From Microthyrium microscopicum (Eukaryota; Ascomycota; Dothideomycetes; Microthyriales; Microthyriaceae), in contig MU004230.1 in NCBI GenBank assembly GCA_010405405.1, positions 2,935,744 through 2,999,743 on the forward strand: a stretch of DNA of 64,000 bases, given 5' to 3'. Made by a program: the position numbers and the translations under genes. Numbering within the stretch: position 1 is the stretch's first letter; each line of letters opens with the position of its first letter. This document shows positions 31,428 through 59,170 of this stretch, piece after piece. The notes beneath the pieces were generated by a model. The model was not told the origin of the DNA and did not search any database. It saw only the letters and a list, made by a program, of their open reading frames with translations.

Positions 31428-31663
31428 TGGACTACCCAGTCCTCTTCCTCCAGCTAACTTGCGTCTCGCACCCAACCTCCCTTTTCTACTTCGTCCCGAT
31501 GCATGGTCGCGGTTCGGTTGATACCCCTTCGTTGTCGGCGAAATCGGTGTTTTTGTGACAAGAAACTTCGCGCACAGGGAGTTTCTTTGTCAAGGCGTTT
31601 TGCTCATCTTCTCCTCAACATCACCAACAAATACCCCATGAGGGGAAAACAGTCCATTGTTAC

Positions 31664-31694
31664 CCTTCTTCTTCTTTTTCTTCTTTTTCTTTTG
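31664..31694. repeat. CTT/T-rich microsatellite
   Basis: Imperfect run of CTT units with T interruptions in the PSY2 downstream region, soon followed by a short GTT run at about 31,714-31,735. A simple sequence repeat, likely length-variable between strains. Confidence 0.8.
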
Positions 31695-33379: not shown

Positions 33380-35466
33380 ATGCCAGCTTCATCGCTGCTA
33401 TATGTCGCGCTGGTATGCAAAATAGTCGGAGTAGGCAAGTCTTCCCATCTGAAGCCAAGACAACGCATATAACAGCCTTTTTGACTGACAAGTCTAGCGT
33501 CACTCGAACCAACAGCGGAACCAGGCTCGATCAGCTCAAGCTTTATACCCGAAAGAACCGGCAGCGCAACACCACACAATACATACAATCCTACTCCATT
33601 GCCACGATCTGAGAATGATTCGCCGACAATCCCATCCACGCCGAATATCAAAGCGCTTGCAGGACCTGGCGATGGAGGAGGGCATGGTAAAAAAGGACCA
33701 CCAAAATCGCCTCCAAAAGGCAAAGGTCCAGTCCCAGTACCACATCTTGGCAATGGTGGAGTCCCAGTTTCTCACAGCAGTTGGCCAAGTGTAGGTCCAG
33801 CGGCGCCAAAGCATACTCCTGAAGATGACTCGGATGAAGAAGGATATGGCCCACCTCCTCCTCCTGCGCAGACAACAGTACATCCTCCAAAGCCGATTAC
33901 GCATGCTCCAAAGCCAAATACTACGCATCCTCCGAAGCCAGTAACTACGCCTCCGAGGCAGACAGGTCCACCGGGGCCTAAGCCTACTAACTACTGGAGC
34001 GGGATTTTTCAATGGCCTGGAAAAGGAGCACCTTGGTTGCAGGATGGGTCTCGGAATGGCACACAAAGTGGAAACAAGGGAGGCAATGGAGGGCGCAATG
34101 GAGGAGGAGCTGCTGCCGGTAGGTCAATGATGATCTAAAATTGCTATATTGAGCGCTGATGAAATGATCTAGGTCTCCCTGACTTGGAGCTCCATGGCGG
34201 TGGTGGAATGCACAGAGAACAATTTTGCTCTTCGCTGATCGCTACTGCGTTCCCGAAGGTCATGATGTCCTTTGCCCAAGGGCATCCAATTGCCTCCCAA
34301 TCCGTTACCGTAACACTGCCAGGTTATGATCGCCCTGCGAACTCTTGGAAAGAGTGTATGCCGGCATATGGTCCGTTTGCATGGACTGGTGGGCGGGCGG
34401 CACCTTGGGGAGACGGACCACCGCCCGTAATTGTGGTTTCTGGAGGAAACCCATCCCCTGATGAAGAAGTCTGTAAAGCTGCATCTGCTACTCTGGGTGA
34501 GCAAGTCCAGTCGGTTTTCGCTAGTGCTTCTTCGTCTAGAATTGCGCATACCGCGTATGGGCCGCTGGGCGGAAGAGCTACTGCAACAATACACGGCGGT
34601 CCTTGTATCAAGGCTAGCACTTATCCAAATGGCCGAGTCCCTGGAATATATCCTTCCACTGCTGTCAGTCACGGATCAGCGGTTCCTGGTGTTGCTCCTT
34701 CCACTGGTGTATCTGGCGCAACAATGACACCAGCCCAAACAGCCGCTCCAACGACAGAAAACAGCGCTGCGCCAACTCCAGAGGGTAAACTTGGGCCACT
34801 CGAAGTTATGACGGGAGACATCGCAATTTGCAGACAGTATCCCGATTTCCTGACTAACGATTGGAGTCATGTATACACGCTAGAACGACATACAGTGTTC
34901 AAATCGGATTGTTGGTGAGTTTTGACTGCTCGCATGCCGAGATGTACAAAGCAAGCTAATTGATATAGGACTGTGGCTTCTTTGCCCGGAGAAATGGGTT
35001 CTATCCAGGGCAGCAACATTTGGCTGCATGACTCAGAACATAATTGCTGGTTCCATGATCAATTGCTTGCAGATCCCGTCGAGAATATTTCAAAAAAGTT
35101 GCAGTATTGTAAAAGTCCGGGTCGCTTTGTCGCAGGATTATTGCCACAATACTCGAGGCAAGACTGTTATGACGGTCCATCGCTGGATGCGACTTCAGTG
35201 AATTTAGGATCTGGTGATTATGTGGATGTAAGCTGCCAGATATTTGGAGAAGAAGTACGAGGGAACCAGTAAGTTCGGTCCAAGATAGTGGAAGTGTACG
35301 TTGCTGATTGTGAAAGCACATGGATCAAAGCAACACAGGGCTGTTATATGCCCGGAGCCGTATTCGACGAGAGCAAATGGAGAGGTAAGTTCTAACTCTA
35401 AGGCCTGTCATGAATATCAGATATCCTCTAACAAGGCCAGGATCTGCTCTTCAACGCTGTACATAG
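33380..35466 (+). CDS. predicted secreted Pro/Gly-rich protein with Cys-containing repeats, function unknown
   Basis: Begins MPASSLLYVALVCKIVGVG, a plausible signal peptide. An intron with a weak GTCTTC donor (about 33,434-33,492) would lead in frame into LASLEPTAEPG and a long Pro/Gly/Lys-rich region; this first join is uncertain. Firmer exons follow: to 34,118, then 34,173-34,915, 34,970-35,268 and 35,317-35,384, all GT-AG and in phase. A final short exon is unresolved: acceptors near 35,432-35,443 give different short C termini, so the end is approximate. The second half holds two similar segments, GSIQGSNIWLHDSEHNCW and GEEVRGNHTWIKATQGCY, each Gly-x2-x-Gly-x2-x-Trp then Cys-aromatic about eight residues on. 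This layout resembles SH3-like cell-wall modules, but I do not identify a family. It faces the sedolisin gene tail to tail. Confidence 0.65.
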
Positions 35467-35826
35467 ACAGATATTCCGCATTATATACCTTCAGCCAAAG
35501 GACTGGCTTAAAATTTATATTTGTTTTCATCAGAAGCGCTACAGTTCCCAGTCCAAATGATATAGATATCGAGAAAAGAGCTAAAGATAAGCACGACACG
35601 ATCGTTTATATGATAGGTCTTCATAAATTATTGCAGAGCTTATTATCTCGAAATATAACAGCTCAAAGCTGCCCTCTGCGACATCAGATATTGTCTGATA
35701 TGATAATACAGGTCAAGCCATTCGTGACCCTTTCGCGACTACTTATGTCTCTTCTTATCCAGCTCTCCACCCGTCAACTTCACCAGCGCTGGGAATACCT
35801 GAGATGCAAGTTAGCTTAACAATCGT

Positions 35827-37715
35827 TCATAGGTGACCTATCTCTCTTACTGGAGTTCCAAAACCGGTGACGGCATCCCACCCCTTGACTGCTGGAAAGC
35901 CTGGCGAGTCACAGCCAACGGCACTACCACCAGTGATATCCGTAAAACCAAAATGTCCTTTTTTATATAGCCAAGGATTTAGAAAACCAAGGGTTGGCTT
36001 TCCAGCAGCAATCAAAGCATCGTTGACCAAGGCAATGATACCAGAGAACAGTGGTGTAGAGGCACTTGTTCCACTGATTCTTTCTTCAGTTCCGTTCCAA
36101 AAGATCGCGAAGTTTTGGCCTTGTGCCGAGATATCTGGGAATGCTCTGCCAGATTTGTTGTACAAACCGTTGAATTTCCCGCCTAGTCCCTCGATATACT
36201 TGTGTACAGCATCGACCTGATACATTGGTTTGGGGAAATAGTTGGAGAATCCGCCTCCGCTCGAGTAAACACCTCCAATAGGATTACCATTCGCGTCTAG
36301 GCTTCCACTGAATGCGGCAACTTCAGGTTGGAATTGATGCGTGGCTCCAACGGCAGTTACATAAGGACATGTTGCTGGAAATCCAGGGAGAAATCCGGTG
36401 GTGTTCGTATTCTGGAGTTTGCATCTCTTCCCGTTTGGCCCAACGCCATCATCACCAGAGGCAACCAACAAACTGATTCCTCGAGCACCAAGTTGAGCAA
36501 ATCCTCGACAAACCCTCATGGCATAATCGAGTGGAACAGACTGCTCGTCATCGCCATAGCTTGTGGACACTACTGGCGGTGTGTCATCTTTGTCTAGCAC
36601 GTAATTAATCCAGGTAAGATATGGCTCGTTGGTATTAGTTGTGCTCAAAGGTCCTGGAATAAAAGGTGGTTCTCCACCCGTCGAGTATGCGATCACTGGG
36701 GTAGGAGAGCTGATACCTAAAATAGCTTGCACGTCAAGATTTGCTTCTTGGGATATGCCCGTGAGAGCCTGCGCATATGTCAAAGGTCCGTCTTGCGTTG
36801 GCCCTCCGTCTATGGATATCTGCGGGAATGAATTGGCTTGCTCCAAAGCGTCCTTACGATACTTGTTGACAAATTCTAGAGCATCTGGACGAATGGGGAT
36901 CTCGCCCAAAAAGTTATTGAATCCGATGCTGTTTTCATCGTCCGATTGGACTTCGTAGTTCGCTGTCTTGTAAAGAGCCTGGAAGCATTGCGGAGTCACG
37001 AGAGTAATGTTGCACACTTTGGACAGTGTCGGATCTGAAGGAGGCACATAACCCTCCGGAATCTGTGCCTCCACGCCAAAACCAATCGTGTTACTCTTCC
37101 TAGGCTTGTAGCGCAGGAAAGAAGTTGTTGGCTGGATAGTGTCTATGTGCGCATGGAGATGCTGTGGAAGTGACCAGCCTAGTGTGCGAGCAAGTCTTGT
37201 GCCGTCTTCATGCTCATAGGCAGAATATTTAGTCTGTAACAAATTCTCAACATCTTTCAAGGGCAGTGATACGCGAATCCAATCTTTAGCAGGGCTGTGT
37301 TCAAGTTGTTCTGTAGAGATTCCGCTCTGTTTTAGCCACGCATACACCAGATCCAGTGATTCCTTAGTCGGTTTGATCAGCTCAGTCACTTCTTTGCTAC
37401 TAAGGTGCTGTCCATATCTAGCATGTTCAGGGTCGGAAACTGTTGCGTAAATTATCAGCCAGGATAAAGACGCACACTTGTATTCAAGTTACCTTCATAC
37501 AAATGTCGCTCGAGCTCGTCAAATCTGGATTGTTTGACCCCTATTTGTAGTTGGAGATGACTGTTGTCCGTTTCCAAAGGTATCGCGGACCTTTTCCATC
37601 CTCTAGGTAGCGTGTGTCTTTCCCTGATCGTATAGGCACTTGTCGCTTGTACCGGAGTTCCAGACACCAGGTCCACCACCAACGCAAAGAATGTGAGTTG
37701 CCAACTTCCCAACAT
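35827..37715 (-). CDS. secreted sedolisin (S53) peptidase, tripeptidyl-peptidase type
   Basis: Acid serine-carboxyl protease that removes tripeptides from protein N termini after secretion. Exons 37,493-37,715 and 35,827-37,439 join through a GT-AG intron of 53 nt, keeping frame, and give 611 aa, the normal size for fungal TPP-like sedolisins. MLGSWQLTFFALVVDLVSGTP is a signal peptide. The pro-kumamolisin domain follows (HARYGQHLSSKEV, then LARTLGWSLPQHLHAHI). In the catalytic domain the Glu/Asp pair lies in QEANLDVQAI and the nucleophile Ser in SGTSASTP. An Asp near the C terminus (FTDITGGSAVGC) belongs to the calcium site. It is the last gene before the AT-rich block, and such enzymes serve protein degradation at acidic pH. 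Confidence 0.93.
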
Positions 37716-39396: not shown

Positions 39397-39404
39397 TTAA
39401 ATAC
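39397..39404. repeat. left target-site duplication
   Basis: TTAAATAC, directly outside the left inverted repeat. It differs from the right copy only at position 2 (T versus C), the change expected of CpA to TpA mutation by RIP. Confidence 0.55.
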
Positions 39405-39515
39405 TATGCTAAGGCATAGGTTGGGTAACCTATTAGGGTTAACCTAATATATATAGATTCTTAGCATTAGGTTAGGTTTTAAAAATATTTTATAAAACCT
39501 ATACCTAACCTAAGC
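39405..39515 (+). repeat. left terminal inverted repeat of the AT-rich element
   Basis: Starts TATGCTAAGGCATAGG and continues through repeated GGTTAGG-like words into GGTTAGGTTTTAAAAATATT. It pairs with the right end (54,105-54,215), with differences mostly of the C/T or G/A kind. Confidence 0.65.
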
Positions 39516-40445
39516 AAAATAAAATTATTATAGGTTAAACCTAAGGAACCTAAAGGACCTAAATTAGAAACTTATTAAGTAAGATTTATTTAGTACGTAA
39601 CCTATTTAGGTTATAAAAGAAGAGTTACTATATCTAATATAATTAGTAAAAGCTAAGTAGATAGAAATAATCTAGTATATAAATTAGAGAGTTAGAAAAG
39701 TATTAATTAAAATATTTAGTATAGTATATAGATTAAACTATATATTAACTAGCTATTACTACTAAAATCCTAATAACTAGTTTAAACCTTCTTCTTCTTA
39801 CTAACCTTACTAAAGACTATACCTATTAGTAGTTACTTTTACTTATTCTCTAATTCCTACTAAAAAGTAGACTTAAATATTAGTTTATAAACTCTTCTAC
39901 TAGTAGCTATTATAAGTAAAAGCCTATTAATATCTTTTAGTAATTATCTATAAAAAGAGTCTTAAGTATTACTATTCTCTATCTTATTACTATTCTTATT
40001 ACTATCTAAATCTATACTATAGAATCTAGAAGAGGTCTTTAAGCTTATAGATTTACTAGTACTAATACCCTTAAGGTTTTCTTTCTCTTTAGTAAATCTA
40101 AAACTAGTATTATTTTTATTATTAAAACTATCTTTACTAGCCTTATCTACGTCCTTATCTAAAATATTATTATCCTTACTTAAATTATTTAAATTATCTT
40201 CCTTATTAGAAATAATAAGCAACTTATCTAAATCTTTATAATAAGTTATATAATTAAATATCTAATAGTATATAATATTAGGATTACTAAAATAAATATA
40301 ATTAAGTAGAGTATTTATAAGTTATTTTATAATTATATTAATATATTTTTTATATATACTAATCTCTACTTTAATCTTATTAGAACTACCTTAATAGTCT
40401 AAAATATTAGCTATTAATTTAGTAAACTTATTATTATTATATTAG

Positions 40446-40520
40446 NNNNNNNNNNNNNNNNNNNNNNNNNNNNNNNNNNNNNNNNNNNNNNNNNNNNNNN
40501 NNNNNNNNNNNNNNNNNNNN
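40446..40520. other. assembly gap (75 N)
   Basis: Run of N inside the AT-rich element. True length and content are unknown. Confidence 0.98.
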
Positions 40521-41053
40521 TAAATTATAAATAATATAATAATAAAGATATACTACTTTTAAAGTATTATATAAACTTATTAGATAAAGATAAGCTAGTT
40601 AAGCTATTATCTATTATAATATTATTATTATCTATAATTAGTTCTATATTATTAGATTAAGTATTTAAATTACTATACTTCTTAAGCTAAACTTTATAAA
40701 AGTCTTTAATTATTATGTTATACTAAGATAAACTATTTAAACTAGGATAGTCCTTTTACTAAGGATTAGTAAAGGTAAACTTAGCTATATAAGGAGATAA
40801 TAACTAACTAAAAGTATAAATACGCTATAATTAGATATTAATTTATATTAGGTTAAAGTATACTTATAGTTTTCCTTAAGCCTCTTTTAAACTAGACTAA
40901 AGTTTACTCTACTAATATAATTAAGTACTTACTAGTATATATTTACCTAGAATAGCCTCCTTATTATTAATATATTAAAAGAGCTTTTAGAAGTATAAAA
41001 GAACTTTATAGATAAATAAAGCCTTAGATCTACTAAGAATCTAGGTTATAGCG

Positions 41054-44000
41054 TTAAATAGAGTAGTAAGCTAAACTAGATACCGTAAGAAAATAGTAAG
41101 TTAAGTAATGTAAAGGCTACTTAAGCCCTACAATTTTAGGTAGCGTTATAAGGGGCGTCAAAAATATAGGGCTAGTAAAATAGGTAGTATCTATTTTTAA
41201 CGCCCCTTTGGTGTCTAGATATTATTACTAAGTAAGCTATTTTGTCGTTTTTAAAGCTAATCTAAACTAATTCAAGTAGGATGTTATTATTTTAATAGTA
41301 GGGGTAGATTTTGCAATTAGGCTAAAGCTATAGAAGAACATTTATATATAGATTTTGTAGTAGAATTCTATATCGTTCTTTATACTAATTAATATTCTTA
41401 AAATCTAATTCTTTTAACTCTAAACTAATTAAATACTAGGAATTTAACTATTACTATGCTAAAGGCGCTAAAGAAAGTATACTAAAATTATTAGCCTTTT
41501 GCTAAATTAGATTTAAATGTTGTAGGTTTAACCTTTAGTTAATCCTCTAGGGCTAAATTACATGCTAGGAAGCATAAATTACTTTTATTAAGGAAATAGT
41601 ATACTAAATAGGCTAAAATGAAGTCCTAGAATTGTTCTTCTATAGAACGCTAACTAGAGGTAGTAGGGTAGATAATATAATAATATATTCTACTTAAGAG
41701 GGGTGAATAGCAATATAAACTACCTAAAGGTATAAAGTAGAGTAAATGTCCTAATGCTTATTGCTAGTAGCGTCCTGCTAGATGTAGTAATGCTATGGAA
41801 TTCTTTAAGGAATCTTATTTAATAGTATTAAGATAGTAGACTTAGCGAGTAGCTTTATAGATTACTAAGAATTAATTCTATTATATTATTAACTCTCTAA
41901 AGTGCTCTAAAGACTATTCTAGACTTAAAGATATAATCTATATCTAGTATTACGAGCAAAGAGAAGAGAAGAAGTCTATTAGTACTTATTAATTGCTTTA
42001 GTATATAAATAACGTATAGCAATATATTTATACTACTAAGATTGCTTATAGTAAGCTTCTAAAAGACTAAAAATTAACAAAAGGCTAGCTTTAAAGATTC
42101 CTATTCTGTTAGAGGATTAGTTAAAGGAAGGCTACTTGTCTTACTTAATAGTTACTAAAATTATAAGTAGATATATGCTAGGACTTTATTACTTATATAA
42201 GGCTTACTACCTATAGAGCTATTAGACCTACTAGTAGTAAAAGAAAGAATATTAATACTATCTCTAACTAGGATTTAGAAGTAATAATATAGCCCTATTA
42301 AATAGTTAATATAGATAAGATACTAATACTTTTTTGTAACTTTAATAGTTATACTTTAGCAAATATAGGCTCTAAGACTATTGCTATTTATACTTATAAA
42401 GATAAAGATAAGAAGCGTTAGATAATAATAGTTCTAGCTATTACTATTAACGGCATCCTTTAAATTCTACTGCTAATTATCTTCTATAGAACTAAGAATA
42501 AGAAGAAGGGTCGTATTAATAAGAAGGAGGGCCTATACTACTATAATAGCGTTTATATAAAGTATAATAAGATAGCGTAGAATAATAATAAGTTAATATA
42601 GTAGTAGTTAAAGGAAGTATATTTAAAAGGAATAGATAGAGCCCTAGAAGGGTATTCTAGAGGTCCTAGTAGTCCTAATAGCTCTAAAGATATTCTATAG
42701 CCTTCTATCTTAGGTAATTCTTCTCTTATACCTTTTTAAAATAAAAATATTTTAGTACTAACTATAGGATCTAGAGCTTAATTTAATAATATCTCTACTA
42801 AATTCTAGCCCTACTATAATATCTTTAATATCTTGCACCTCTTTAATATCTATAACATCTATAATATCTACTTCTAACTCTTCTATTCTTATTATAGACG
42901 CTTTCTCTGTTTATAAAATAGACTTTATTAAGCAAATCTATAAAGATAATAATATTATTATTATTATTATTTCTCTTAGTTATATATCTAAAATCTAACT
43001 ACTTAATATTAGTATGAATAAGCCTTTTAAATAAATAGTTAAGGAATTATAAGATATATAGGTCCCTATATTCTACTAATAGGATTACTTTAAAGACTTC
43101 CCTAATATAAAATCTATAGAACCTTTAGAATAGACAACATCTTAATGCTGCATGTTTATAATATATATTATAGGATAAGTATAGAATTAAATACATACTT
43201 ATAATACTAAAGTTATTAGGCGCTCCTTTACTACTACGGGATTAAATAACTAGTTAAATACTATCGTTACGGAGGAGAAGTATAACATTAGTATTAAAGA
43301 TTTACTAGTACTACTAGACCTTTCAAACTAGCGTTTAGTAAAGCTAGAATTTGTTAAAGCTACTGCTGCTAAAGAGGATAATAAGCAAGAGAAGGATAAT
43401 AATCCTATAGTACACGTATCTAACGTTAGTAACGATAATAGCATAGAATATTATAATAAAGATAAGATTACAACATCTAATATTAATACTAAAGATACTA
43501 AAAATACTATAAATATTAAAGTTATTTAAGATATTAAAGATACTAAAGACACTACTATAGATATTAAGTTAAACAAAGATAAAGATAATAGATTTATAAC
43601 GTCCTTTATAGCGATAATAAATGCTCTACTGTAAAATTTACTTATACTTATTTTGCTAGAAATATCTCTATCGTTTATTATGCCTTAGCCTATTCTTCCT
43701 ATTCTTCTAATTATATAATCTCTTTACCTTTAGAATTAGTATCTAATACTGCTATCTAATACCCCCTCCTAAATTAAATCCTATAGCGGACTTAAAGAGT
43801 TAAATCCTATTTATTTTGTATAGCAGAATACTTATAGGTTACTAGAATAGACACTTAAAGACTAGTATTAATAGCTTCCTAAATGGGTCTATAATCCTAC
43901 TCTAGAACCTACCTAAAATATTAAGATAGTATATCTAATAGTAATATTCTATTAGTAATAGGACTCGTAATATTAGTTGTTTAGCGTTAAATTAGGTAGT

Positions 44001-44364
44001 ATTCTTGACTTATAGTAAATCTAGTAGAGTTAGGAAAATTATTAGTAACGACTAGGTAATATTAGTATTAAAAAGAGCGCTTTAATTTATATACTTATAT
44101 ACAATTCTATACTATCTAGTTCTTAATATCTTGAGCTTTAAATATATCTATTTTAGTGTTAGAATTCCTTATTTAAAAGGATATAAAGTTAAATAGGATT
44201 ATAGGGTTCGTAGTTATAAAAATAGATTAGTAGTAATTTACTACTAGGAGCATTTCTATAGAAACTACGCTAAAAACGCCTTTAAATGCCCTCTCCCTTT
44301 ATAACTTATATTGCTTAACTTACTATTTTCTTATAGTACTTAATATTAGCCTATTCTATATTAA
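41054..44364. mobile_element. nested RIP-degraded element with about 50-bp inverted termini
   Basis: Left end (from 41,054) and right end (to 44,364) are inverted copies over about 50-60 bp, with the best-conserved core TAAGAAAATAGTAAGTTAAG at both ends. The remaining differences are mainly transitions, as RIP would leave. The interior (3.3 kb) is less AT-rich than its surroundings and contains long stretches that look like former coding sequence interrupted by TAG/TAA codons (for example around 42,540-42,740). The class cannot be told. The exact outer boundary and any target duplication are not resolved. Confidence 0.5.
41150..41208. repeat. 17-bp stem hairpin in the nested element
   Basis: AAGGGGCGTCAAAAATA (41,150-41,166) is the inverse of TATTTTTAACGCCCCTT (41,192-41,208), with one mismatch and a 25-nt loop. 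The GC-rich stem stands out in the AT-rich block. It may be a subterminal repeat of the nested element or a tiny separate insertion. Confidence 0.7.
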
Positions 44365-47300
44365 ATGGTGTAAGAATTCTTACCTATTGCTAATCCTTCT
44401 TTTTTCTAGCTTTATAAGCTTTAGTAATAAGGAAGTATATAAGGAGTATCTTAATAATTTAAAGGCAAAGTTCTATTATTATTATTAAGTCCTAACGTAT
44501 TTTAATATCTTAGATTAGCTAAAGGTTACTACAAGGATTAAGATTATTCTAATATTTATTAATAGAGTATAGATTAGACATTTAGGATTTATTAGAATAA
44601 AAACTAGCTAAGTTAGTAAAGAACCTAAGAAGATATAGTTTAAAGGAGCTAATATACTTAGTAATACTACGAGCCTAGACTATATTAGCTATTTTAATTA
44701 ATACTTTTTTAACTTACTAAAAATAAGAACTAACTTATTTTATATAAAGTAAAAGTAACTAAGCTATATTTTATAATAAGTTTCCTCTTCTTTAAAATAT
44801 CTTCTTTAATAAATACTTATTTAATTTCTTTATCTATAGATTTATAGCTAAAATAGGAAAGTAAAGCGCCTTATACTAGTTAAATAATATAAGATATATA
44901 AAGAACTTAAATAATACTTATAGTATACTTAAAGTATTAATATATATTTAATACTTAGGTACTATTATCTTATTATTACTAGTATTATTAACTATAATAA
45001 AGTAAACCTTCTTAGTAATACTATATTAATTAAATATATTACTTATAAGTTTAGCATAAGCCTTACTTATAGACTTTCTAATAGTAGAAAGAAAGCTAAG
45101 AAGCCTCTCCTTTTATTCCTACTATAAAGTAATTTATTATCTAATAATAGCTAAGTACTCTTTATAAGTAAAATTTAAAGACTACCTATTTAGCTAAATA
45201 CTAATATATATATTATTACTTAGCTAAATAAACTTTTCTTTTAACTTTATAAGATTAATTATAACTTATTTTATAACTTCTAAAGTAATAATTTTCTATA
45301 AAGTAAATTAAGGTTAAATACTTAGTAGTATATAGTAGTTAATAACTTACTATATAAATTATAATTTAAATATACTAAGAAGAAGACCCTTAGCTATAAT
45401 TAAACGTGCCTATAAAGTAAGAAAATCTTATAGTATAATCTTATATCTATTAAAGCTATAAGTAGCCTTAAGCTTTATATTATATATTTATAAATATTAT
45501 AATTAGTAATAGTATAGTATAATAGGAATTAAATATACTAAAGTTATAGTTAATCTTATTTAATTAAGTATAATCTAATCTTTATTACCTTTAGCTATAA
45601 TAATATTATTATAATCTTAAGAAGTAATATACTTATTAAGTAATCCTTACCTAATAAGGAAAGTACTAGTATTATCTTTATAAAGGTAATAGTATTTAAG
45701 AAACTTATAATAATAAATATAGTAATAATAAGGCTAGCTAGTAGACTTAAAAGCGCTTACTTATATATTATCCTAAATAAGGCTTTTTTTCTTACTATAC
45801 TAATAAGAATCTATTTATATAAGAATTAGCCTTTCTTAGTTAGTAGTAAACTAAAATATAATTTATTACTAAGTCTAAAAATAGTTATTAGTATTCTTAC
45901 TCTATAAATACGCTTTTTTTCCTTAATTACTAAATTCCTTTAATACCTTAAGTATTATACTAGAAATAAAAGAAGTAAGTACTAGTAAATTAGAAGGTAA
46001 TATGCTAATAAGAAAGTTTAAAATAGTACTATTAGTAATAGTACTTCTATCTTAGATAGTAAGTTATAATAATAAGAAAGAAGTTATTAAGCTAGCTCTA
46101 AATATAAAGGAATTAAAGGTAGAAGCAAAGGAAAATATAATTTAGGATAGCGTTAACTTTATTAAAAAAACCTAGAGTTCTAAAGGAATAAAATTAATAA
46201 GTTAAAAAAGTATTAATTAGAAATCTAATACTATTTATATTATTTTATAATATTATTTATAGAAACTTCTATTTATTCTTCCTCTTCTTTTAATATTAAT
46301 TAATTATACTCTATATTCTAATTATCTACTTTCTAATTACGCTAATTTAACTAATCTAGTAATTTAGGAAGTAACTAATATAACGCGTTTCTTCTCCTAA
46401 TTTCTTATATTACTATACTATTAAACTCTTTCTTAATTTATTATATTTTTTAGCTCTTCTTAGAACTACTTAGCTTAGTCTTCTTTCTCTAAAAGTAATT
46501 TTATAAACTAAAGATTTATAAAGTTATTCCTTTATATAATCTATACTTAGTCTAATTATTACTAGTAGTTAGCTATTTTATTTTTCTTAATTAGTATATC
46601 TACTAAAAAGTAATACTAATTCTACTTAAGTAGTTATAATACGCTATATAAAATATACTAAATCTAAAAATTATTTCTATAATTAACTTTATTATACTAC
46701 TTAATATAATATTTAAACCTTAAAGTAAAAATATCCTAATAGTCTATTAATTTCTATACTTAATTTAAAAAGATAATATACTAATTAATCTCTATTATAT
46801 TTTCTTTATTATAGTAATAAAAAATACTATCTAAATTAACCTACTTATATTTTTATATCTAAATAATAATTAAATAGTAGAGAATATTTTAGTCTAAAAA
46901 TAATTATAAAGCTAGAAATAGGTAACTAAGGTACTCCTTACTTTAATTATCTTTAGTTATAAAGATTATACTACTAGAAAAAATTATAACTATTATTAAT
47001 AGCTATTTAAGAAGTATTACTACTAAAGTACTTACTAAAAAATAATAATTAGCTACTTATAGATTATATAGTACTTTTATATAGAAAGTTTTAGAACTAT
47101 AGTCTTAAAGAGTAAATAAATATAGATATTAATAATAGAAAGCATATATAGTATTATTATTATTATAATAATTTAAGTTTATATTATTTATACTAACTAA
47201 AAATATTTATAATAAATTCTTTAAAGTTTATTATATAAAAGTATATAATTATAGTAATAAGAGTTTACTTAATATAGTAAAATAACTTCTACTATAATTT

Positions 47301-48009
47301 ATTTCTAAGATTTACTACTTAGAAAAGTAGTAAAATAAATATAAATATTACTAAAAATTTAGTAAAAAAAAGAAAATAAAAAAATAATAATAAGTAAAAT
47401 CTAAAGTAAAGAATAGAGTTAGTATTATAACTTAAATAAACTTATAAAAATTAGAAGGTTATATAGACTTAAAGAGTTTAGAGTTATAGTCTTAGAGTAT
47501 AGTTATATTTAGTAATAATATATAAATAATTTATTATAAAAAGTTAAAAATAATAAAACTTATTAAGACTAGCGTCTTATAATTAAGATATATTAAACTT
47601 TATACTAGTATTAAGCTACTATTAAGGCTAAGTTTTAAAGAGTTATAAAAATATTAATTAGAATTTAGAAAGTTTATTATAGCTTTTACTTTCTAAAATA
47701 TTTATTTATTATAGTATTCTTTTCTTATTAGTTTAAACTAAGTTCTACTAAGTTAAAAGTTAATATTCTAAATATTCTTATTTACTATAAGTTATAAATT
47801 ATTCTATAGCTTACCTTATTAAGTTATTTACTCCTTTTAATTAGTTACTATATAATCTACGCTTTATTAATCTTTATTATATTATTTTAGCTTACTTTAT
47901 TATTTTAACGTAACTATATTCTTCTTAACTTTATTTACTTACTTCTTAGAATTTCTTTCTTAATCTTAAATTTTTTATATTTACTATACATACTTTTATT
48001 CTTTTTTTC

Positions 48010-48235
48010 TAATCTATTTATAATCTTATACTCTTCTTTATATACTATACTCTTTTTTATCCTTTTCTTTTAATCTACTTATAACTTTATACTTCTCTTT
48101 ACTTACTATACTCTACTTTATTTTTTTCTTTTAACTTACTTATAATCTTATACTTCTTTTTATTTACTATACTCTACTTTATTACTCTCTTTATATCTAC
48201 TTATAACTTTACTTTCTTATTTTCTTTTTATTTAT
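48010..48235. repeat. 61-bp minisatellite
   Basis: About 3.7 tandem units of a C/T/A-rich sequence begin at 48,010, 48,071, 48,132 and 48,193, exactly 61 bp apart. Each contains the words CTTATAA, TTATACT and TTACTATACTCT with scattered C/T changes. A poorer copy may precede it (from about 47,950). Confidence 0.75.
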
Positions 48236-48429
48236 CTCTTCTTTATTAATAAAAGTAAGCTATAAAACTCTTACTATCTATCTTATAACTTTTTATTCTT
48301 ATTCTTTATATATTTCTAGTATTATTAAATAAGTATTATTATTTAAGTTATTTTTTTTACTAATATTCCTTATAAATAATAATATTAGTAGTAAAGAAAA
48401 AAATATATATATATATAAATCTCTTTATT

Positions 48430-50350
48430 ATTTAATATATATAACGTACTCCTTAGGGTGCTTCTATAGGTAGTACTAATGGGCCTAAGCAGACGATACC
48501 TCTAAATATAGTAAATAAACCCTCTAGGGAAGAAACTACTATAGTGCACCTAGGAGGGGCTTTACTAGCCTTATAGAGTCTTTTTACCTCTTATAAATGC
48601 TTATAGTTTAATCTATAGATTAGAACTATCTTATTATATATTTATTCTCTTTAATTCTCTTCCTCTACTTATTTATTAATATATCTATAACCTCTTTATC
48701 TATTTCTTTAACTTTAGGAATAATCCTTAGGCTAGTAATAGTAGCCTACAAAGCTACTAGTACTAATATAGTAATACTTCCTCTAGAGACTACTAAAGGC
48801 GTTAATGCTAAAGTGCTTCGTATAAAGCTTATAAAGTTAAGAGGCTATTATCCTAATGCCTTTACTATAAAAGCTAGGGCTATTAGCCTTTTAGTACCTT
48901 TTATAGGTAAGGCTACCTAGGTAGTAGTAGAGGGTTATTTACCCTTTAGTAGTAATAGTAGTAGTAGTAGTATACTAAGTATAGAAAACTATACGTCTTT
49001 ACTATAATTCTATAAAGCTAATATATATTTAAATAGAGAGGCTTAGAGAGCCTCTACTACTATAGTATTATTCTTATACTTACTATAAGATTTATCCTAA
49101 TAGTTATACCCCTTTTTAAAGCAGTTAGAGCATTATTTCTTCCTTTTTTAAGTATAATCCTATGTATTATAGCCCTTTATATAATAGCTATATTATAGCT
49201 ATTCACTATAGATAGATTAGGTATAACCTTAGTACTTATAGTAATAATACTATACATATACTAGTATAGTATCCTATAGCTTATAGCTATACTATACGTT
49301 CTTAATAGTTAGTCCTTAGGCTATAGTAATCTCTTATAAAGCCTCTATAGGTAGATAGACGATAAGGAATAATCTCTTTTTTCTTAAGATTATTATCTTA
49401 TTGCTATAAATCTAGCTTACGTAGGAAATAGCTAGTATATATCTATTAGCCTTATATAGGCTCTTAATAAAGCCTAAATTATATTTATCTACTTCCTTAT
49501 TATAACTAATCTTATTGCTAATATGTTTTATAAGAATAGTAGCTATTTTAATAAGATAGTCTTACTAGAGTACTTACGCGCCTTATATAGTATAGCCTAT
49601 AGCTTAGGTGTAATCCTTTGCCTTAGCGTCTCTAAAAATAAGTCTTAGATCGCTACTTTATAAGGGTTTAACGCCTAATATACTTATAAATATCTTTTTA
49701 AGTTCCTTAAGGACCTCTAAGGAGGTTTTAGTATATTTATCTTTATCTAGTTATAAGATAATTAATTATCCTTTTAGTTTACTTATAAGTAGTTTATTAT
49801 AGAAGGCAACGTGTACCTAATTCTATATATTTAGGGCTAGCATAGTAGGTTTATACTATACTATAGCCTTAATCTTATCTAGCCTTTTTATAATTATATT
49901 TAGATTAGTAGAAGGATTAAGGAGAGGATATTTATTAGCTATAGGCTTTTTAGTAAGCTTATACTTATAGATATAGTCCTATAGCGTAGCTAGTCGCTTT
50001 AGTATAAGCATAAGCTTCTATTTAAGAATAACTATTTCTAATCTAATTTGTTGCCCTTATTAGAATTCTAAGGCTATCTAGCCTATAGTAATAACTATAT
50101 AGAGTTCTTTTAACGTCTTAAAGGAGACTAAGCTACTATTATAACTCTTAAAGTTAGAGTCTCTCTCTTCTATTTAGTAATTTAGTAGTAAAGTTTCTAC
50201 TATTTAGGCTCTTTTGCTATAATAGCGTAGCGCCTACGTGTATCTAGCTAAATTTTAGATATATTTATACTGTAGAGCGTTCAAAGAGATTCTAATAATT
50301 TAATTAAATTAAACTACTAGTTTAGTGTAAAAGTAGCCATGTATTAAGCT
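48430..50350. other. less AT-rich segment inside the dead element, possible nested insertion
   Basis: This 1.9 kb stretch keeps noticeably more G and C (for example AGGAGGGGCTTTACTAGCC near 48,550 and GCGTAGCGCCTACGTG near 50,225) than the DNA on both sides. It reads like a former coding sequence broken by many TAA/TAG codons. No family could be recognised and no clean terminal repeats were found. Confidence 0.35.
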
Positions 50351-53040
50351 AAAGAAGGTCTCTAAAAAAAATATATAATTAATAAACTACTAATATTCTA
50401 TATTCTAAAGAAATATTTATTTACATTATATTAGAAGTTTTTTAAGCTACTAAGTTAACTTTACTAATACTAACCTATTATTAATACTATATTTAAGTTA
50501 TAATAAAAGTTTCGTTATATCTATAAAATAATTCTTCTTAGGCTTAATTATTACTTACTACTAATATTATTTATATATACTCTTTTTCTTAAATAACTAG
50601 GAGCTTAAATTTAGACTAAGCTATTTATACTAATACGTTCTTAGAGTAATCTCTTAGTAAATAAATATTTAAGATATAAGAGAAGAATCTATAAGATAAA
50701 AAGATAGCTTAAGAAGTTATAGAAGAAATTATTATATTTCTATCTTATTAGTCTAACTATATAAAAGAAACTTATAGTAATAAGTTAAAGACTTATAGCT
50801 AATAAGAGTAGTATAAATTTATAATATAGCTTATAAATTAAAGGTCTTAGCTTTTAAAATAGAACTAGTATCTTTAATTAAAGCTAATAATAAATAATTA
50901 GAAAATATAACTATTTATATTAAAGCCTAACTACTTATTATATTAGGATTATAAAGTTAAAAATAGTAAGTTAGATTTATATAAGTTAGAATAAATAGTT
51001 TTATTTTAGTATTTTAATACTTTAAATAGTACTATATCTATAATCTTATTTTCTAATTAATATTTAATTATACTTTATTAAGAAAATATTATTTTCTAAA
51101 ACTTTAACTAGAGCTAATATTAATTAATAAGTATTTTTATTTTATCTAAATTAAGTATTAGTTATAATAAATTAACTTATATTTATTAAAGGAACTAGAA
51201 AGAATTTTACGCTTAAAGCTAAATATAAGTAAATCTTTATTACTAATTTCTTAAACTTTACTAGTATCTTTTATATTAACTTCTAAGCTTTTTTCTAAAG
51301 CTTTAAGGTAAATAAACTATTAATCTTTTAAACTTCTTAATCTTCTATTTTTTAAATTGCCTTATTAAATAGTATTTTTTCTTAAAAGTTAAGGTATTAA
51401 GTTATTAAATTTATAATTACTCCTTACTCTATTTTAGTAAAAATAAGACTAATACTAGGAGAGTAACTACTATATTTATAATAAGTTTAGAAATTTATTA
51501 GTATTAATTTTAGTATTAGTTTTATTATATTTTATAATTACTTTATAGAATAATTTTAGAAGTTTCTTCTAAGTATAAGTTAATAGCTAATATCTATAGT
51601 TAAAGTCTACTAATTCTTAATTCTTTTCTTAATTCTTTATAGTACGTAATTTAGTAAAGTCTAGAAAGTGTTTCTTATATAGTATTAGTTAAATTTATAT
51701 ATACTAAGTATAAAAAACTTATATTAAGAGTTTTTATAAGAATAAGAATCTAAAGATAGTAATAGTCCTTAATAAAGCTAGTTTCCTTATTAGCTAAATC
51801 TTTAATAGCATAATTAATAAAGAAAACGTTATAAATAGCTTTTTACTATCTATAGATAAAGTTAACTTAAGAGAAGAATAAAATTTATAAATTATACTCT
51901 TAGTAACTATACTTATAAAAGAGTTAATAAAATTTTAAATTAAAGGTAATTTAAGAAGCCTCCTTAGAAATAATATAGCTAATAGTAATATTATAATTAT
52001 AAGTAATATCTTTATTAGTATTAATATATATATTATACTACTTAGACTTCTTATATTTTATTTTTATTAATTCTTAATAGTAAGCTAATAAAGTAATAGT
52101 AGTAAAATATAGTCTAGTTTAATAAGTAGTATACTTAGGTTTCTAGCTAAGTAATTCTATAAATTTGCTAGTATTAATACTAAAAGAAATTAATAAAAAA
52201 AATCTAATAGTAAAAAAATATATACTACTTTTATTTAAAGAGTTTTATATAAGTAATAAGAATAGTAATATATTAGTTTTTAAAAGCTTCTTAGTATTCT
52301 ATAGTCTTACGCTTTTTATTATTTTTATAATTAATATAAGTATTATTATTCTTCTTAAGGTAATTATATTCTATAGTATAGCTATTAAGATTAGTATAAT
52401 AAGCATAATTCTTAATTATATAAGGATTTTAAAATAATTAATTTATAAGCTTCTTAGTACCTATATTAAGAGAATAAAGTTTTAAAGAGTTAAATAAGTA
52501 TTAATTAGGCTAAGAAACTAAAACTAAGACTAATAAAGAAAATATAAGAATTATTATTACTAATTAAAAGAAAGTATATAAAAGAAATTAAAGTATATAA
52601 GTAATATAAAGTAGTATATATATATAGTCTCTTAGGTAATACTCTTTAGAATATATTAATTTTAGTACTAGATTATAATACTTTTATTATTTTAGGTTAG
52701 CTCTATTATTACTTATTCTTCTTTACTACTTTACTCTTTTTAATTAGTTAAGCTTTTAAAGTTTTAAATTATACTAGTTTAATACTTTAAATATTTTCTC
52801 TCTATAAAGGAATATTAAGAAATAGTTTTTAATAAGTAATAAGCTTACCTCTTATGTCTTTAAAAAATTTATCTATTTCTTTTTCTTTAATTCTTTCTAC
52901 TTTTTTAAGATTTTTAAGTCTTTCTTACCCTTACTATTTAGACCTTTACTACTTTAAAGAGCTTTATTACTACTATAGTATACCTAAATAATCTTAATTC
53001 TCTTCTCTCTATACTTCTTTAGACTCTAATAAACTTTATA

Positions 53041-53260
53041 ATACTCTAAACCTTTTTATATAACCTTTATAAACTACTCTAGCCTAGTAATAATTTTTAT
53101 AGCCTTTAAACTTCTTTATAAATCTTTTATAAACTACTTTAACTTAATAGTAACTTTTATAGCTTTTAAACCTCTTTATACTACTTTTATAAATTACTTT
53201 AACCTAGCTATAATTTTTATAAACTTCTATATATTAATAGTAACCTTAATAAACTACTTT
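53041..53260. repeat. 60-bp minisatellite
   Basis: Units starting at 53,041, 53,101 and 53,161 are in exact 60-bp register, with a partial fourth to about 53,260. Shared words are TTTATAAACTACTTTAAC, TAATTTTTATAGC and TTTAAAC. The period is a multiple of three, so it may once have encoded a 20-residue repeat. Confidence 0.8.
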
Positions 53261-54104
53261 ATATTAATAACTAACTTCTTAATACTAATAAAACCTAGCT
53301 ATAACTTATAGAAACTATTATAAAAAAGCTTTAACTTATAAAAACTATTATAACTAGTAAAATACTTATTATTATATATTTTAATATACTAAACCTAGTA
53401 ATAAGTTTTATATACTCTATTTTTTTTATAAATATTAACTATAATACTAGTAAAAGCTTTATATAAAATTTACTAAATTTAGAAAGCTTATAATCTTTTA
53501 ATTCTTAAAATACTATTTATAAAATTAGTTTATAAAATTTATATTACGTTCTAAGAAACTTCTAGTAATAGTAGTAGTTTAATAAATTTAGATATATATT
53601 AGTAAAGTAATATAATTTAATATCTATAAGAATTAGTAAAAGCTTATCTTATTATATACTTTAAAAATAAGTTATACCTCTATTTTCTAGATTATAAGTT
53701 ATTAATTTTTATAAACGCTAACCTTTATATAATTTATATAAAGAGAATAATAATTTAATAAAAGGATATAAACTTAGTAAAAGCTTTATATACTAGCTAA
53801 GTTATAAACTATTAAATAAGTATTTAAAATTAACTAGTAACTTTATTATAGAGAGGTAATTAGAACTAGTAAACTTTAAAAAATAGAAAAGAAATTATAG
53901 TTATATAATTATTTATAAATAATAGAACTAATAAACTAATTCTAAATCTTAATTAATACTTTTATAACTTATTAAAAAAGTAGTAGTAAAATATAATTAT
54001 TAAATACTATACTAAACTTTTTAAGTTAACCTAAATTATATAGCGTTAGTCTTTTATTTAGGTTATCTATTAATAAATACGACCTATAAGCTAAACCTAT
54101 AGAA

Positions 54105-54215
54105 ACCTAATCTATTTAGGTTAGGTTATAATATTTCTAAAACCTAACCTACGTAGGTTATAAAAATATTTAGAGAAACCCATACCTAACCTAACCTAAC
54201 CCATGCCCTAGCATA
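54105..54215 (-). repeat. right terminal inverted repeat of the AT-rich element
   Basis: Reverse complement begins TATGCTAGGGCATGG, followed by several GGTTAGG units and GGTTAGGTTTTAGAAATATT, matching the left end at 39,405-39,515. It keeps more G than the left end, so RIP hit the two ends unequally. Confidence 0.65.
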
Positions 54216-54223
54216 TCAAATAC
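54216..54223. repeat. right target-site duplication
   Basis: TCAAATAC, directly outside the right inverted repeat and seven of eight bases identical to the left copy. Confidence 0.55.
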
Positions 54224-55497: not shown

Positions 55498-56318
55498 ATG
55501 AAGTTCTCCAACATCGCCTCAGTCGCTACTCTAGCTTTGGGAGTCTCTGGCAGTCTTTATCGCCGTGACTTGACCACTATCAATGGCGTCCTCACCACCA
55601 TTGGCACCAAGCTCAGTGCTCTCGACTCTGCTGTCAACGCCTTCAGTGGTGATATCTCAGCCCTCCAGTCCGCCAGTGACGATGTTATCTCCACCCTCAA
55701 GTCTGGAACTTCCACCATTTCTGGAACCGACACTTTGAGCCAGACTGATGCCGTTGGTGTTGCTACCTCTGTTCAAACCCTGGAAACCTCTGTTCAAAAA
55801 GCTGTCAACGACATCATCTCCAAGAAGAGCGCCATCGTCGCTGGAGGATTCGGTGGACAGGTCTTGAAGGCACTCCAGGATCAGCAATCTGGTTCTGATG
55901 CTCTTGCCAAAGCCCTCACCTCCAAGGTCCCAACCGAGTTGCAATCAGTTGCTACCCAGCTTTCCGCTGGAATCCACACCGACATCCAAAAGGGTATTGA
56001 TGCCTTCCAGGGTACTGGTGGCTCTGCTCCAGCCTCCAGCTCTAGCAAGGGAGGAGCTGCTCCAACCTCAACCAAGACCTCCGCTGCTACCTCCGCTGTT
56101 TCTGCGCCAACTGGCTCCGTTGCACCAATCTCATCTGGCTCATCTCCCTCAGGCACAGGTAAGCTCATCTATAGTCACAGTTAAAGTGCATGAAACTGAT
56201 TCATTCTCTAGTCAGCAGCGCTCCATCTTCTCCAGCTGTCCAGACTGGTGCCGCCGCTCCAGCAAAGACTGGCTCAGCTTTCCTTGCCGTCGCCGCTGTC
56301 ATGGGACTTCTCCTTTAA
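55498..56318 (+). CDS. HsbA-like hydrophobic surface-binding protein, GPI-anchored form
   Basis: Two exons, 55,498-56,158 and 56,212-56,318 (GT-AG, 53-nt intron), give 255 aa. MKFSNIASVATLALGVSGS is a signal peptide, with RRD just after it. The following 160 residues (TTINGVLTTIGTKLSALDSA ... VQTLETSVQKAVNDI) are helical, Ala/Ser/Thr-rich and lack Cys, as in HsbA (PF12296) proteins that coat hydrophobic surfaces and recruit hydrolases. A Ser/Thr/Ala/Pro linker follows, and then the C terminus GSAFLAVAAVMGLLL, which without the intron would be lost. That tail, preceded by small residues, is a good GPI-attachment signal. It probably sits on the cell wall or plasma membrane. It is the first gene to the right of the dead element. 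Confidence 0.87.
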
Positions 56319-57623
56319 ATCCAGGTTTCGAATGATCTGACTTTTCTGGGAACAATGAATCCCTTCATTGCATCTGGTGCGTCTGGAGCTACATATGGGT
56401 ACTCCGTAACTTGTAATATTCTACACATTCAGTCGATTTCCTCGCAACCATTGTAAATAATTAGGCTTGAAAATGTACTTTTAAAAGAACTTTAGTTTCT
56501 TTGTATGCAACTACTTCCCATACTATTCCAGTTCTAGTAGCTACCTAGATCACTTCTGCTAGTAGTCAGTTCATGGCTTGTAGGCGAAAGCGACCTCTAG
56601 TGCGGCTCAAGAGAGGTTGCGGAGACCTCGTGGCAGGACTTAGACTCCGTCGATATGACGCACAAACCCGTCCGCGGACCCATTTCAGCAATTCCTTTCC
56701 AAACCGAGGATAGTCGTTCTGTTTCTGGGGTACTGACTGGGGTTCCCACGACATGGATTGGCAGTGATTCAGGGGTACAAGTTTGAATCTTCCTGGTCAA
56801 GTAGTTCGTACAATCTAGGATAATTCAACGGCAAAGCATGGTTCGGCGCCTAGCGAAGTTACATGGACTTCAGAGCTACCTAGGCATGAGCTAGTTGTAG
56901 CTGGCTTGTAGTTGGTTCCTGTTCCCATCAGCAGACGTTTCTGATATAGGGCAGTGTCCCCATCCGCTGCGACCCGGTGTAGAACACTAAGATCGGAGAC
57001 GGTAACAACGTGGACTTTGCTAGATTATAGCACTTTGCGGGGATGGGAGTACAGCTAACGGCTCCGGGGATGAAAGTGGTAATGGTTGGTTGTTTGTTGT
57101 CGTGACTCGACATTCTTTGCACGTCTTCACAGCGCATTGCTTCTAATCCATGCCTCTGATCTTGCTGCACAAGGCCAGGAGGGAAAATTCAATGGATTCT
57201 GAATCCTGAAGTCAAGATGACTTTCTTAATTGCATCATTGGACGGTTGACTCATGAAGCTAGAAAATAATGCCACCCCAGTGACAGAAGTATTCAAAGTG
57301 GAGGCTCAAGTACAAATGTATGCGATCATTCACTATAGAAAACGTTAGCTATCGTTTGTTGTCTACATCGTAATAGTATGATTTGAATCCCCAGTAAGCG
57401 AAAGACCAAGTTTAGAAATATAAACCACCAAATAACTGTCCGCTGAGGGGAAGCTGTCCATGCACTCGATCCAGACTATCCATCATATCCAAGCCTACGG
57501 CCTTAGAATCGAAAGCTTTTAAGAGTTGATTATATTCACCAGTCAAGGAAAGGGTATCAATTAGCAAAAGCACAATTACGAGCCTACGGACCACAAGAAA
57601 CACAAAGCTTCTCATATACAATC
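56319..57623. other. intergenic, no gene seen
   Basis: 1.3 kb between the convergent HsbA-like gene and IPI3. It holds their 3' UTRs. The short minus-strand frames (56,566-56,800; 56,928-57,170; 57,412-57,627) have no family resemblance. Confidence 0.5.
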
Positions 57624-59170
57624 TCACGTCCGCCCTAAATCCTTCAAAAAGCCATCCCGCTCTTTTCTCAACTCGCGCATAATCCTAAAGCTTTCGCGCT
57701 GTGTATTCTGCAAACTCTTGACTTGTTGCCGTAACATCTCCACCTCTGAAATTCCTTGTTGTTCCTTATCGTCTTGTAGAGCTATGAAGTCCTCCTCTTC
57801 CTCTTCGTTAGCCTTGCCATTTGTTTGGCGGGACTTTTCTTCGTTCTTCGCTTGTAAATCTAGTACGCCGGCCCAGAGTAGGTCGGCTGGAAAGCCCGGG
57901 TATGCAAGCGCTGCGCTGAATTTCGATTGCGAGCGCACTTGATCTGCCATACTGGAGAATGTGACTCTTTGTGACTCTGCTGAAATATTCGCGTCGAACT
58001 TTGGCTTGATGACTAGATGAGATACTGAAGAACATCCGATTCGTTGAAGAGGGTTGACGGGTTGGATGTTTGTTACTGCGCCAGGAAGTGTACACACGTC
58101 GCCTTCGAAGGTGCCGTTACCCACTGCCCAGCTGCCAATTTTGCCATTGGAGTAGCCCACTAGAAGACGGGTGGCGTCAAATGATAGTGCCATGCAGTTG
58201 ATGGTTGGAGCCTCGTCCTTGGAGTCCGTTGGAGCAGGCCATGCTGAGAGAGCGGAAACGTCGATTGCCGATTGGGTTGATGAGCCTTGTTCAAGTATAC
58301 TGGATTTTGAGGTTTGTGAATAGAAATCAATAAGTTGAATGTTGCCGTTGTCGTAGCCGATGTAGCATGCTCGATCTGCTGGATCCAAGACTAGAGTCCT
58401 AGGTATTTGGGGAAGGAGATACGTCTGTAAAAGCACTCCTTGTGAGATGTGCCATATCAGCATAGACCGGTCTTCTGATATACTGATCGCGAAATTGGAC
58501 GATGACTGGGAATGGCCAACTGCGAGAGCTGTGATTGGAGCTCGATGAGCAGTAAGAGTGTGCACTGGTGTCCTACTAGAAGATGTACTGAATGCTTGAT
58601 CCGATGTCTGGGAGTGCGACAGAATTGAAGCAAACGTCCATATCAATACAGTGCTGTCTAAAGATCCGGTTAGAAAATATTGTGAGCTCTTGTCCACCGC
58701 GATGCTGGTTACAGCTTGCACATGAGATTGTTGAGTTTTAACCACTCGTCCAGAATATGTCTTAAAAGTAATTAGCAATGTAAAAGGCATCAAAAGCATT
58801 TTGTCCATACCTCCCAAATGAGCACGCTGCCAGACTCTGTACCGCACACGACCCAGCTTCCTCCATCGCCACCAGTTGCGAGTGCCGTCACACGCTCGCC
58901 AAACGGTACTGTGAGTTCTTGGGCGCCTTTTTCTCGGTTGTAGACATGGATCACGGCCTTGTCAGCTTGAGCGGCAAAGACATGATTATCGCTAAGAGCG
59001 ACACAGCATGGCCGCGAGGAGGATTTTTTGAAGACTGCTGATTGGCTGAAGTGAGGACGAAGAGTGAGATGAAAAATTCCAGCGTCTTTGACTACTGGAA
59101 CGCTGGCTGCTGCAATTGTTTTGGTAGCGGATTGCGATTGAATCGAGGCGAAAATCTCTTCCGTCAACAT
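57624..59170 (-). CDS. IPI3: IPI3, pre-60S ribosome assembly WD40 protein
   Basis: Subunit of the Rix1-Ipi1-Ipi3 (WDR18 type) complex that acts with Rea1 in pre-60S maturation and ITS2 processing, and also in replication licensing in yeast (family knowledge). Exons 58,811-59,170 and 57,624-58,760 with one 50-nt GT-AG intron; 498 aa. WD-type blocks are visible: ESGSVLIWE|TYSGRV, FLTGSLDSTVLIWTF, AISISEDRSMLIWHI and LLVGYSNGKIGSWAV. The C terminus is an acidic stretch (EEEEEDFIALQDD) followed by a coiled-coil (EVEMLRQQVKSLQNTQRESF), as in Ipi3. It lies in the same orientation as GAR2, 424 bp downstream of the GAR2 stop. Confidence 0.9.

What the first reader, a model, noticed from the sequence alone, without database searches (positions are those of the whole stretch)
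39397..54223. A 14.8 kb dead element bounded by inverted repeats and a RIP-compatible 8-bp target duplication
Seen: inverted ends TATGCTA(A/G)GGCAT(A/G)GG at 39,405 and 54,215, with TTAAATAC and TCAAATAC directly outside them. The only difference in the duplication is CpA versus TpA, the change RIP makes. Established: 8-bp duplications are typical of hAT, P and Merlin DNA transposons. Inference: the whole AT-rich block arrived as, or grew inside, one TIR element far larger than usual, possibly a cargo-carrying or repeatedly invaded one. AT-rich blocks in fungal genomes are mostly described as piles of retrotransposons, so a single bounded unit is unusual.
Basis: partly seen in the sequence, partly recalled or inferred. 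Interest (0 to 1): 0.72.

Follow-up and report, generated by a model that had tools for sequence, protein, structure and literature searches.

The report
RIP-killed transposon family with nested insertions
The AT-rich block is one of 13 two-ended copies found of a roughly 10-kb fungal cut-and-paste transposon that the fungus's own mutation defence has wrecked, enlarged here to 14.8 kb by two later insertions; it is a real and cleanly bounded element, and its transposase type stays unknown.

Summary
The end sequence occurs in the genome as 13 inverted pairs. All 13 carry an 8-bp target duplication: 7 exact, 6 differing only by transitions; mismatched pairs and other lengths show no such signal. 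The window copy is not one 14.8-kb unit. It is a core of about 9.6 kb, collinear with the uninterrupted C13 copy, plus two less mutated inserts: a 3,254-bp TA-flanked TIR element and a repeat of about 1.95 kb. Four fully read copies differ pairwise by 751-843 transitions and 2-14 transversions, so they spread as near-identical copies and were then saturated by RIP (inference). Short GC-rich relatives with the same kind of ends and 8-bp duplications are little mutated. No known transposase domain was found. RIP-mutated hAT transposases of the same genome are still recognised by the same scan, which speaks against a canonical hAT. The superfamily is unassigned. I rate it a new member of a known kind, of moderate interest.

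The parts
39397..39404 (.). left copy of the 8-bp target site duplication, TTAAATAC (RIP-type T)
54216..54223 (.). right copy of the 8-bp target site duplication, TCAAATAC (CpA kept)
39405..39428 (+). left terminal inverted repeat, about 22-24 bp, TATGCTAAGGCATAGGTTGGGTAA
54192..54215 (-). right terminal inverted repeat (reverse complement TATGCTAGGGCATGGGTTAGGTTA)
39405..41082 (+). core element, left segment (RIP-saturated)
   Evidence: 93% identical to the C13 copy in two aligned pieces; differences between whole cores almost all transitions
39905..40404 (-). coding-like remnant, minus strand: the matching stretch of the C4 copy has 1-3 stops per 100 codons and strong 3-base periodicity; no family match
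   Evidence: C13 copy; C4 copy
41083..44336 (.). nested insert 1, 3,254 bp, inverted ends CCGTAAGAAAATAG / CTATAAGAAAATAG, TA target duplication at 41081-41082 and 44337-44338; less RIP-mutated than the core
44337..48408 (+). core element, middle segment; includes a 61-bp tandem array at 47978-48222 that is longer in the C13 copy
48409..50360 (.). nested insert 2, about 1.95 kb, borders uncertain by about 15 bp because of an A/T run; dispersed repeat whose longer matches elsewhere are 67-72% identical; type not assigned
50361..54215 (+). core element, right segment; 60-bp tandem array at 53047-53277

Best explanation
A family of cut-and-paste DNA transposons of about 9.9 kb, with terminal inverted repeats that start TATGCTAGGGCATRGG in most long copies and 8-bp duplicated targets, spread as near-identical copies to at least 14 places in this fungal genome. 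Shown: inverted ends, 8-bp duplications, near-absence of transversions between copies, RIP-type changes, two nested inserts in the window copy, and short relatives with related ends. The transposase was either encoded by the element in a form not recognisable after RIP, or supplied in trans.
For: 13 inverted pairs; 8-bp duplication in 13 of 13 pairs against 156 off-pair comparisons; core collinear with an uninterrupted copy; 751-843 transitions against 2-14 transversions per pair among the 4 copies read in full; core GC 0.178 with 0.24 CpA+TpG per 100 bases, against 0.261 and 2.64 for insert 1, 0.284 and 1.69 for insert 2, 0.481 and 14.1 for the left flank; among those 4 copies 999 of 1,379 C/T or A/G columns lie in CpT/ApG and 103 in CpA/TpG; TA at both ends of insert 1 in 3 of 3 copies inspected; short relatives with 8-bp duplications; both flanks (1.5 kb examined) of ordinary composition beyond the first 100 bp in 10 of 13 paired copies.
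Against: No transposase domain was found in six read-through frames of the window copy or of nearly all of the C4 copy, so the mobilising enzyme is not shown. One of 14 copies (C14) has no detected right end. Only 4 of 14 copies were read in full. In the coarse column count, 222 of 2,080 left and 392 of 1,824 right columns are neither invariant nor RIP-type; I ascribe them to nested inserts and one copy (C17) that does not align, from the restricted counts. No empty-site allele could be examined.
Confidence: 0.93

Rival explanations
1. On the open question of the enzyme: the core was autonomous and encoded its own transposase, of a superfamily not recognisable after saturating RIP or not in Pfam (KDZ/Zisupton-like, P-like or undescribed).
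For: Coding-like segments with few stops and 3-base periodicity occur in the core; two such regions match only this family's 14 copies among the matches listed; 8-bp duplications are reported for Zisupton (PMC12730594, passages); RIP-saturated hAT domains are still recognisable here.
Against: No Pfam match even at E 10. The KDZ model found nothing in the genome, but it also rang in none of the 14 control genomes, so that negative is weak.
Confidence: 0.5
2. On the same question: the core is a large non-autonomous element mobilised in trans by a hAT transposase of the same genome.
For: 8-bp duplications with a T2/A7 excess (19 of 36 positions from 18 sites, p about 0.0006 before correction for 16 tests; T3/A6 is also raised, 18 of 36, p about 0.002); 17 hAT-domain matches exist in the genome; CAGGG or TAGGG lies five bases inside the end.
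Against: The hAT copies at L078 and L080 end in ...CACAACCCTG (border by eye), unlike TATGC; none of the 32 end sites lies at a hAT locus; the terminal five bases do not fit the hAT YARNG rule (recalled).
Confidence: 0.3
3. The core is a composite or cargo-carrying element in the manner of ToxhAT or a Starship.
For: Size, nested inserts and AT-rich RIP context resemble ToxhAT (PMC6737239, passages).
Against: No un-RIPped gene or recognised cargo inside; 13 two-ended copies with target duplications, whereas the ToxhAT paper reports that searches revealed none; protein searches with two core regions listed only this family's own copies. A cargo gene erased by RIP is not excluded.
Confidence: 0.1
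4. Chance inverted repeats around a pile of unrelated insertions.
For: AT-rich sequence gives many weak inverted repeats.
Against: 13 of 13 pairs with 8-bp duplications and a collinear core.
Confidence: 0.005

Closest known systems
ToxhAT of wheat-pathogenic Dothideomycetes (PMC6737239; passages seen)
   Same: TIR-bounded 14-kb-scale unit in AT-rich RIP-mutated DNA, enlarged in some hosts by later transposon insertions, with RIP-degraded ends
   Different: ToxhAT has 74-bp TIRs, carries genes, and searches there revealed no target site duplication; this family has TIRs of about 22-24 bp, 8-bp duplications in 13 of 13 pairs and no recognised gene
hAT superfamily (Dimer_Tnp_hAT, PF05699)
   Same: 8-bp target duplication with a T2/A7 excess
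   Different: no hAT domain detected although RIP-mutated hATs in the same genome are; terminus TATGC instead of CAGGG/YARNG (recalled rule)
Zisupton and Dileera (KDZ group; PMC12730594, passages seen)
   Same: TIR elements (Zisupton) found in fungi with 8-bp target duplications
   Different: no KDZ domain found, but that test had no working control; TIR sequences were not compared
RIP-degraded repeats of Stagonospora nodorum resolved by deRIP (PMC3017866; abstract and one passage seen)
   Same: repeat families made unrecognisable by RIP
   Different: identity of this family with any of those repeats was not tested, and no deRIP was done here

Membership tests
TIR class II DNA transposon | inverted terminal repeats at both ends in multiple copies | tested here: met
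   13 inverted pairs
TIR class II DNA transposon | target site duplication of fixed length | tested here: met
   8 bp in 13 of 13 pairs
TIR class II DNA transposon | DDE-type transposase encoded or supplied | tested here: inconclusive
   no domain found after RIP
hAT | hAT transposase with C-terminal dimerisation domain | tested here: not met
   none of the 17 matches lies in the 14 copies (the tool scores best candidates only); no hit by phmmer or HMM from 8 hAT loci against 4 copies, while the hAT loci recognise each other. A trans-mobilised element would also lack it.
hAT | 8-bp duplication, nTnnnnAn (recalled) | tested here: inconclusive
   8 bp met; T2/A7 excess 19 of 36, p about 0.0006 uncorrected
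hAT | terminus YARNG (recalled) | tested here: not met
   termini read TATGC or RIP-type TATAC/TATGT; a hAT of the same genome ends CAGGGTTGTG
KDZ/Zisupton | KDZ transposase domain | tested here: inconclusive
   no hit, but the control genomes gave none either
KDZ/Zisupton | 8-bp target duplication | tested here: met
   the feature is taken from PMC12730594
Mutator-like (MULE) | MULE transposase domain | tested here: not met
   20 matches in the genome at E up to 1 (17 over the cut-off), none inside the 14 copies (best candidates only)
Tc1/mariner (insert 1 only) | TA target duplication and TIR | tested here: met
   3 of 3 copies inspected
Tc1/mariner (insert 1 only) | DDE transposase domain | tested here: inconclusive
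   no Pfam match in six read-through frames

The most novel reading that the evidence does not exclude
The family belongs to an undescribed superfamily of large TIR transposons (8-bp duplications, TATGCYAGGG ends, about 9.9 kb, genes without recognised relatives) that is overlooked in fungi because RIP erases its long copies while short relatives keep the readable ends.
Probability: 0.2. Interest if true: 0.6.

Novelty: new member of a known kind. Interest (0 to 1): 0.42.

Why it matters
At least ten AT-rich islands of this genome are exactly bounded DNA transposons, some with nested inserts, set in DNA of ordinary composition (1.5 kb examined on each side), not piles of retrotransposons; the depletion of CpA stops within roughly 100 bp of the border there. 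The family also offers a natural comparison for RIP: long copies are saturated, three relatives of 455-475 bp keep GC 0.46-0.47, and one of 432 bp is fully converted (GC 0.12).

Tried and rejected
Reading the block as one 14.8-kb unit: rejected by the uninterrupted C13 copy. A hAT identity from the 8-bp duplication alone: not accepted. MULE: no domain in the copies. KDZ: no hit, uninformative because the control genomes gave none. Pfam on six read-through frames of the window copy (E up to 1) and of L083:57-9678, nearly all of the C4 element at L083:60-9895 (E up to 10): nothing. PDB on all six frames of the C4 copy (E up to 1): hits in 2 of 6 frames, a LAGLIDADG endonuclease group at E 0.0026-0.18, read as AT-rich composition, and a designed protein at E 0.95. 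One search used a wrong reading frame by my mistake (4 hits at E 2.2-2.3) and was repeated in the right frame as (1 hit at E 4.2). Protein queries from two core regions listed only the family's own 14 copies, so no host gene donor was seen. Literature searches; the TIR 16-mer is in no paper of the held library, which lacks most subscription journals. An earlier count gave 8 of 13 exact duplications; the right count is 7 of 13.
Full report
The window lies in an unnamed 36.9-Mb genome in 20 contigs (contig C1, positions 2,935,744-2,999,743). A search with 116 bases of the left end returned 15 main hits and 4 weak opposite-strand hits. A search with 396 bases listed 14 full-length left ends among 21 matches, and 236 bases of the right end gave 14 matches, 13 at 89% identity or more and one at 78%, a short relative. 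A 24-base pattern with up to 3 mismatches found 32 sites and 0 for the pattern read backwards. Twenty-six of the 32 are 13 inverted pairs at spacings of 9,837, 14,811 (the window), 9,831, 9,562, 18,305, 9,836, 9,769, 9,899, 9,679, 20,607, 9,861, 9,897 and 17,329 bp. The other six are one left end without a partner (C14) and five ends of short GC-rich relatives or fragments.

All 13 pairs carry an 8-bp duplication. Seven are exact; in six there are one or two differences, eight in all, every one a transition. Pairing the left flank of one copy with the right flank of another gives 64.5% mismatch on average (156 comparisons, two of them with as few as 2 mismatches), and no other length from 5 to 12 shows a signal. 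In all six altered duplications the A/T state is on the left. The first 100 bases outside hold on average 9.1 CpA+TpG per 100 on the left (14 copies, one of them in an AT-rich flank) and 11.5 on the right (13 copies), against about 13-14 further out. RIP therefore seems to leak a short way out of the element, perhaps more on one side.

The window copy is nested. Against the uninterrupted C13 copy, the core aligns from 39405 to 41083, from 44337 to about 48408 and from about 50361 to 54215. Insert 1 (41083-44336) has inverted ends and a TA duplication, also seen at both ends of the two other copies inspected; one search lists 12 matches longer than 1 kb with at least 81% identity, the window's own included and several of them pieces of one copy. 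Insert 2 (about 1.95 kb) is a dispersed repeat with relatives at 67-72% identity. One of these relatives lies inside another long copy of the family (C11:507230-527836), and protein searches show interruptions in the C3 18.3-kb and C11 20.6-kb copies as well. The core has GC 0.178 and 0.24 CpA+TpG per 100 bases, insert 1 has 0.261 and 2.64, insert 2 has 0.284 and 1.69, and the left flank has 0.481 and 14.1. The inserts are thus less RIP-mutated than the core, which fits later arrival (inference).

The copies are young by ordinary mutation (inference). Among the four copies read in full, pairs differ by 751-843 transitions and 2-14 transversions. In the left 1,030 alignment columns of 14 copies there are 8,338 transitions against 130 transversions over 93,730 compared sites; 45 of 91 pairs, all those among ten of the copies, have no transversion. 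The right-end table has 2,798 transversions, of which 2,730 come from the 12 pairs with one copy, C17, that does not align there. The cruder column count gives 222 of 2,080 left and 392 of 1,824 right columns that are neither invariant nor RIP-type, nested inserts and the C17 copy included.

In 10 of 13 paired copies both flanks have ordinary composition beyond the first 100 bp (1.5 kb examined, all bins GC 0.36 or more). The exceptions, in element orientation, are the left flank of C1:278629-288465, the right flank of C11:507230-527836 and the right flank of C17:151772-169100. In these 10 cases the AT-rich island ends at the element's ends.

Short relatives share the ends: C5:2614078-2614552 (475 bp), C11:585929-586403 (475 bp, 96% identical to the first) and C3:2289251-2289705 (455 bp), with GC 0.46-0.47. 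Their duplications are GCTCTAGA/GCTCCAGA, ACTCTGCT (exact) and CTTGCAAT (exact). The two 475-bp copies differ at 21 positions, all transitions, 15 of them in CpA/TpG context, so RIP has touched them lightly. Over the left 165 bases the C5 short copy differs from each of four long copies mostly by C/G in the short and T/A in the long one (27-32 of 36-43 differences), with 8 transversions; over the right 95 bases there are 10-21 such changes but also 15 transversions. They are therefore relatives with diverged ends, not simple deletions of the present copies. A further short copy on C17 (432 bp by my reading of the border, duplication TATAAGGC/TATAAGAC) is fully AT-rich (GC 0.12) in flanks of 0.44-0.45. 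Size alone therefore does not decide who is spared.

Function. Six read-through frames of the window copy gave no Pfam family up to E 1, and nearly all of the C4 copy none up to E 10. This is informative for hAT: 17 hAT-domain matches were found in the same genome, none in the 14 copies, and the three of them that I scanned, one at GC 0.19 with 0.4 CpA+TpG per 100, are recognised by the identical read-through scan. Eight hAT loci recognise each other but none of four copies of this family. Most of the eight hAT loci are less mutated than the core, so the control is strict only for the most mutated ones. MULE: 20 matches elsewhere, none in the copies. KDZ: no hit, but the control genomes gave none either. 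The core does contain coding-like stretches, best on the minus strand near the left end (1-3 stops per 100 codons at element positions 501-1000 of the C4 copy, with strong 3-base periodicity). Part of the periodicity near the right end may come from the 60-bp tandem repeats. Thus either an unrecognised transposase or mobilisation in trans remains possible.

Comparison. The nearest described parallel that I saw is ToxhAT, a 14.3-kb TIR unit with nested insertions in RIP-mutated DNA, for which searches revealed no target duplication (PMC6737239, passages). Zisupton elements make 8-bp duplications (PMC12730594, passages). The hAT features YARNG and nTnnnnAn are recalled, not taken from a call. 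I conclude that this is a real, multi-copy, RIP-inactivated TIR family with nested inserts; the superfamily is open.

Noticed in passing
C17:454097-454528 (L022) versus C5:2614078-2614552, C11:585929-586403, C3:2289251-2289705: Short relatives of nearly equal length: one fully AT-converted (GC 0.12), three little converted (GC 0.46-0.47); size alone does not explain it.
   Followed up: partly
C8:1457055-1457129 (L070): A possible 75-bp relative with both ends, six extra bases at one end and an apparent 8-bp duplication CATGAAGT (read by eye).
   Followed up: no
13 insertion sites: In 6 of 6 altered target duplications the RIP-type change is on the left copy, suggesting that RIP leaks out of the element asymmetrically.
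   Followed up: partly
L083:6001-6165 (element positions about 3731-3895, minus strand): Weak match to the homing endonuclease I-MsoI (E 0.0026), probably a product of AT-rich composition.
   Followed up: no
L078 and L080: A hAT family of this genome seems to end in ...CACAACCCTG, that is CAGGGTTGTG, a canonical-looking hAT terminus (border by eye).
   Followed up: partly
window 29200-37389 and 55498-63856: Ordinary host genes on both sides: PP4R3, a pro-kumamolisin/S8 protease, an HsbA-like protein, a WD40 protein, an RRM protein, an Alg6/Alg8 glycosyltransferase; 3 of 9 ORFs scanned had no family.
   Followed up: no
window 47978-48222 and 53047-53277: Tandem arrays of 61 and 60 bp inside the core; the 61-bp array is longer in the C13 copy.
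   Followed up: no
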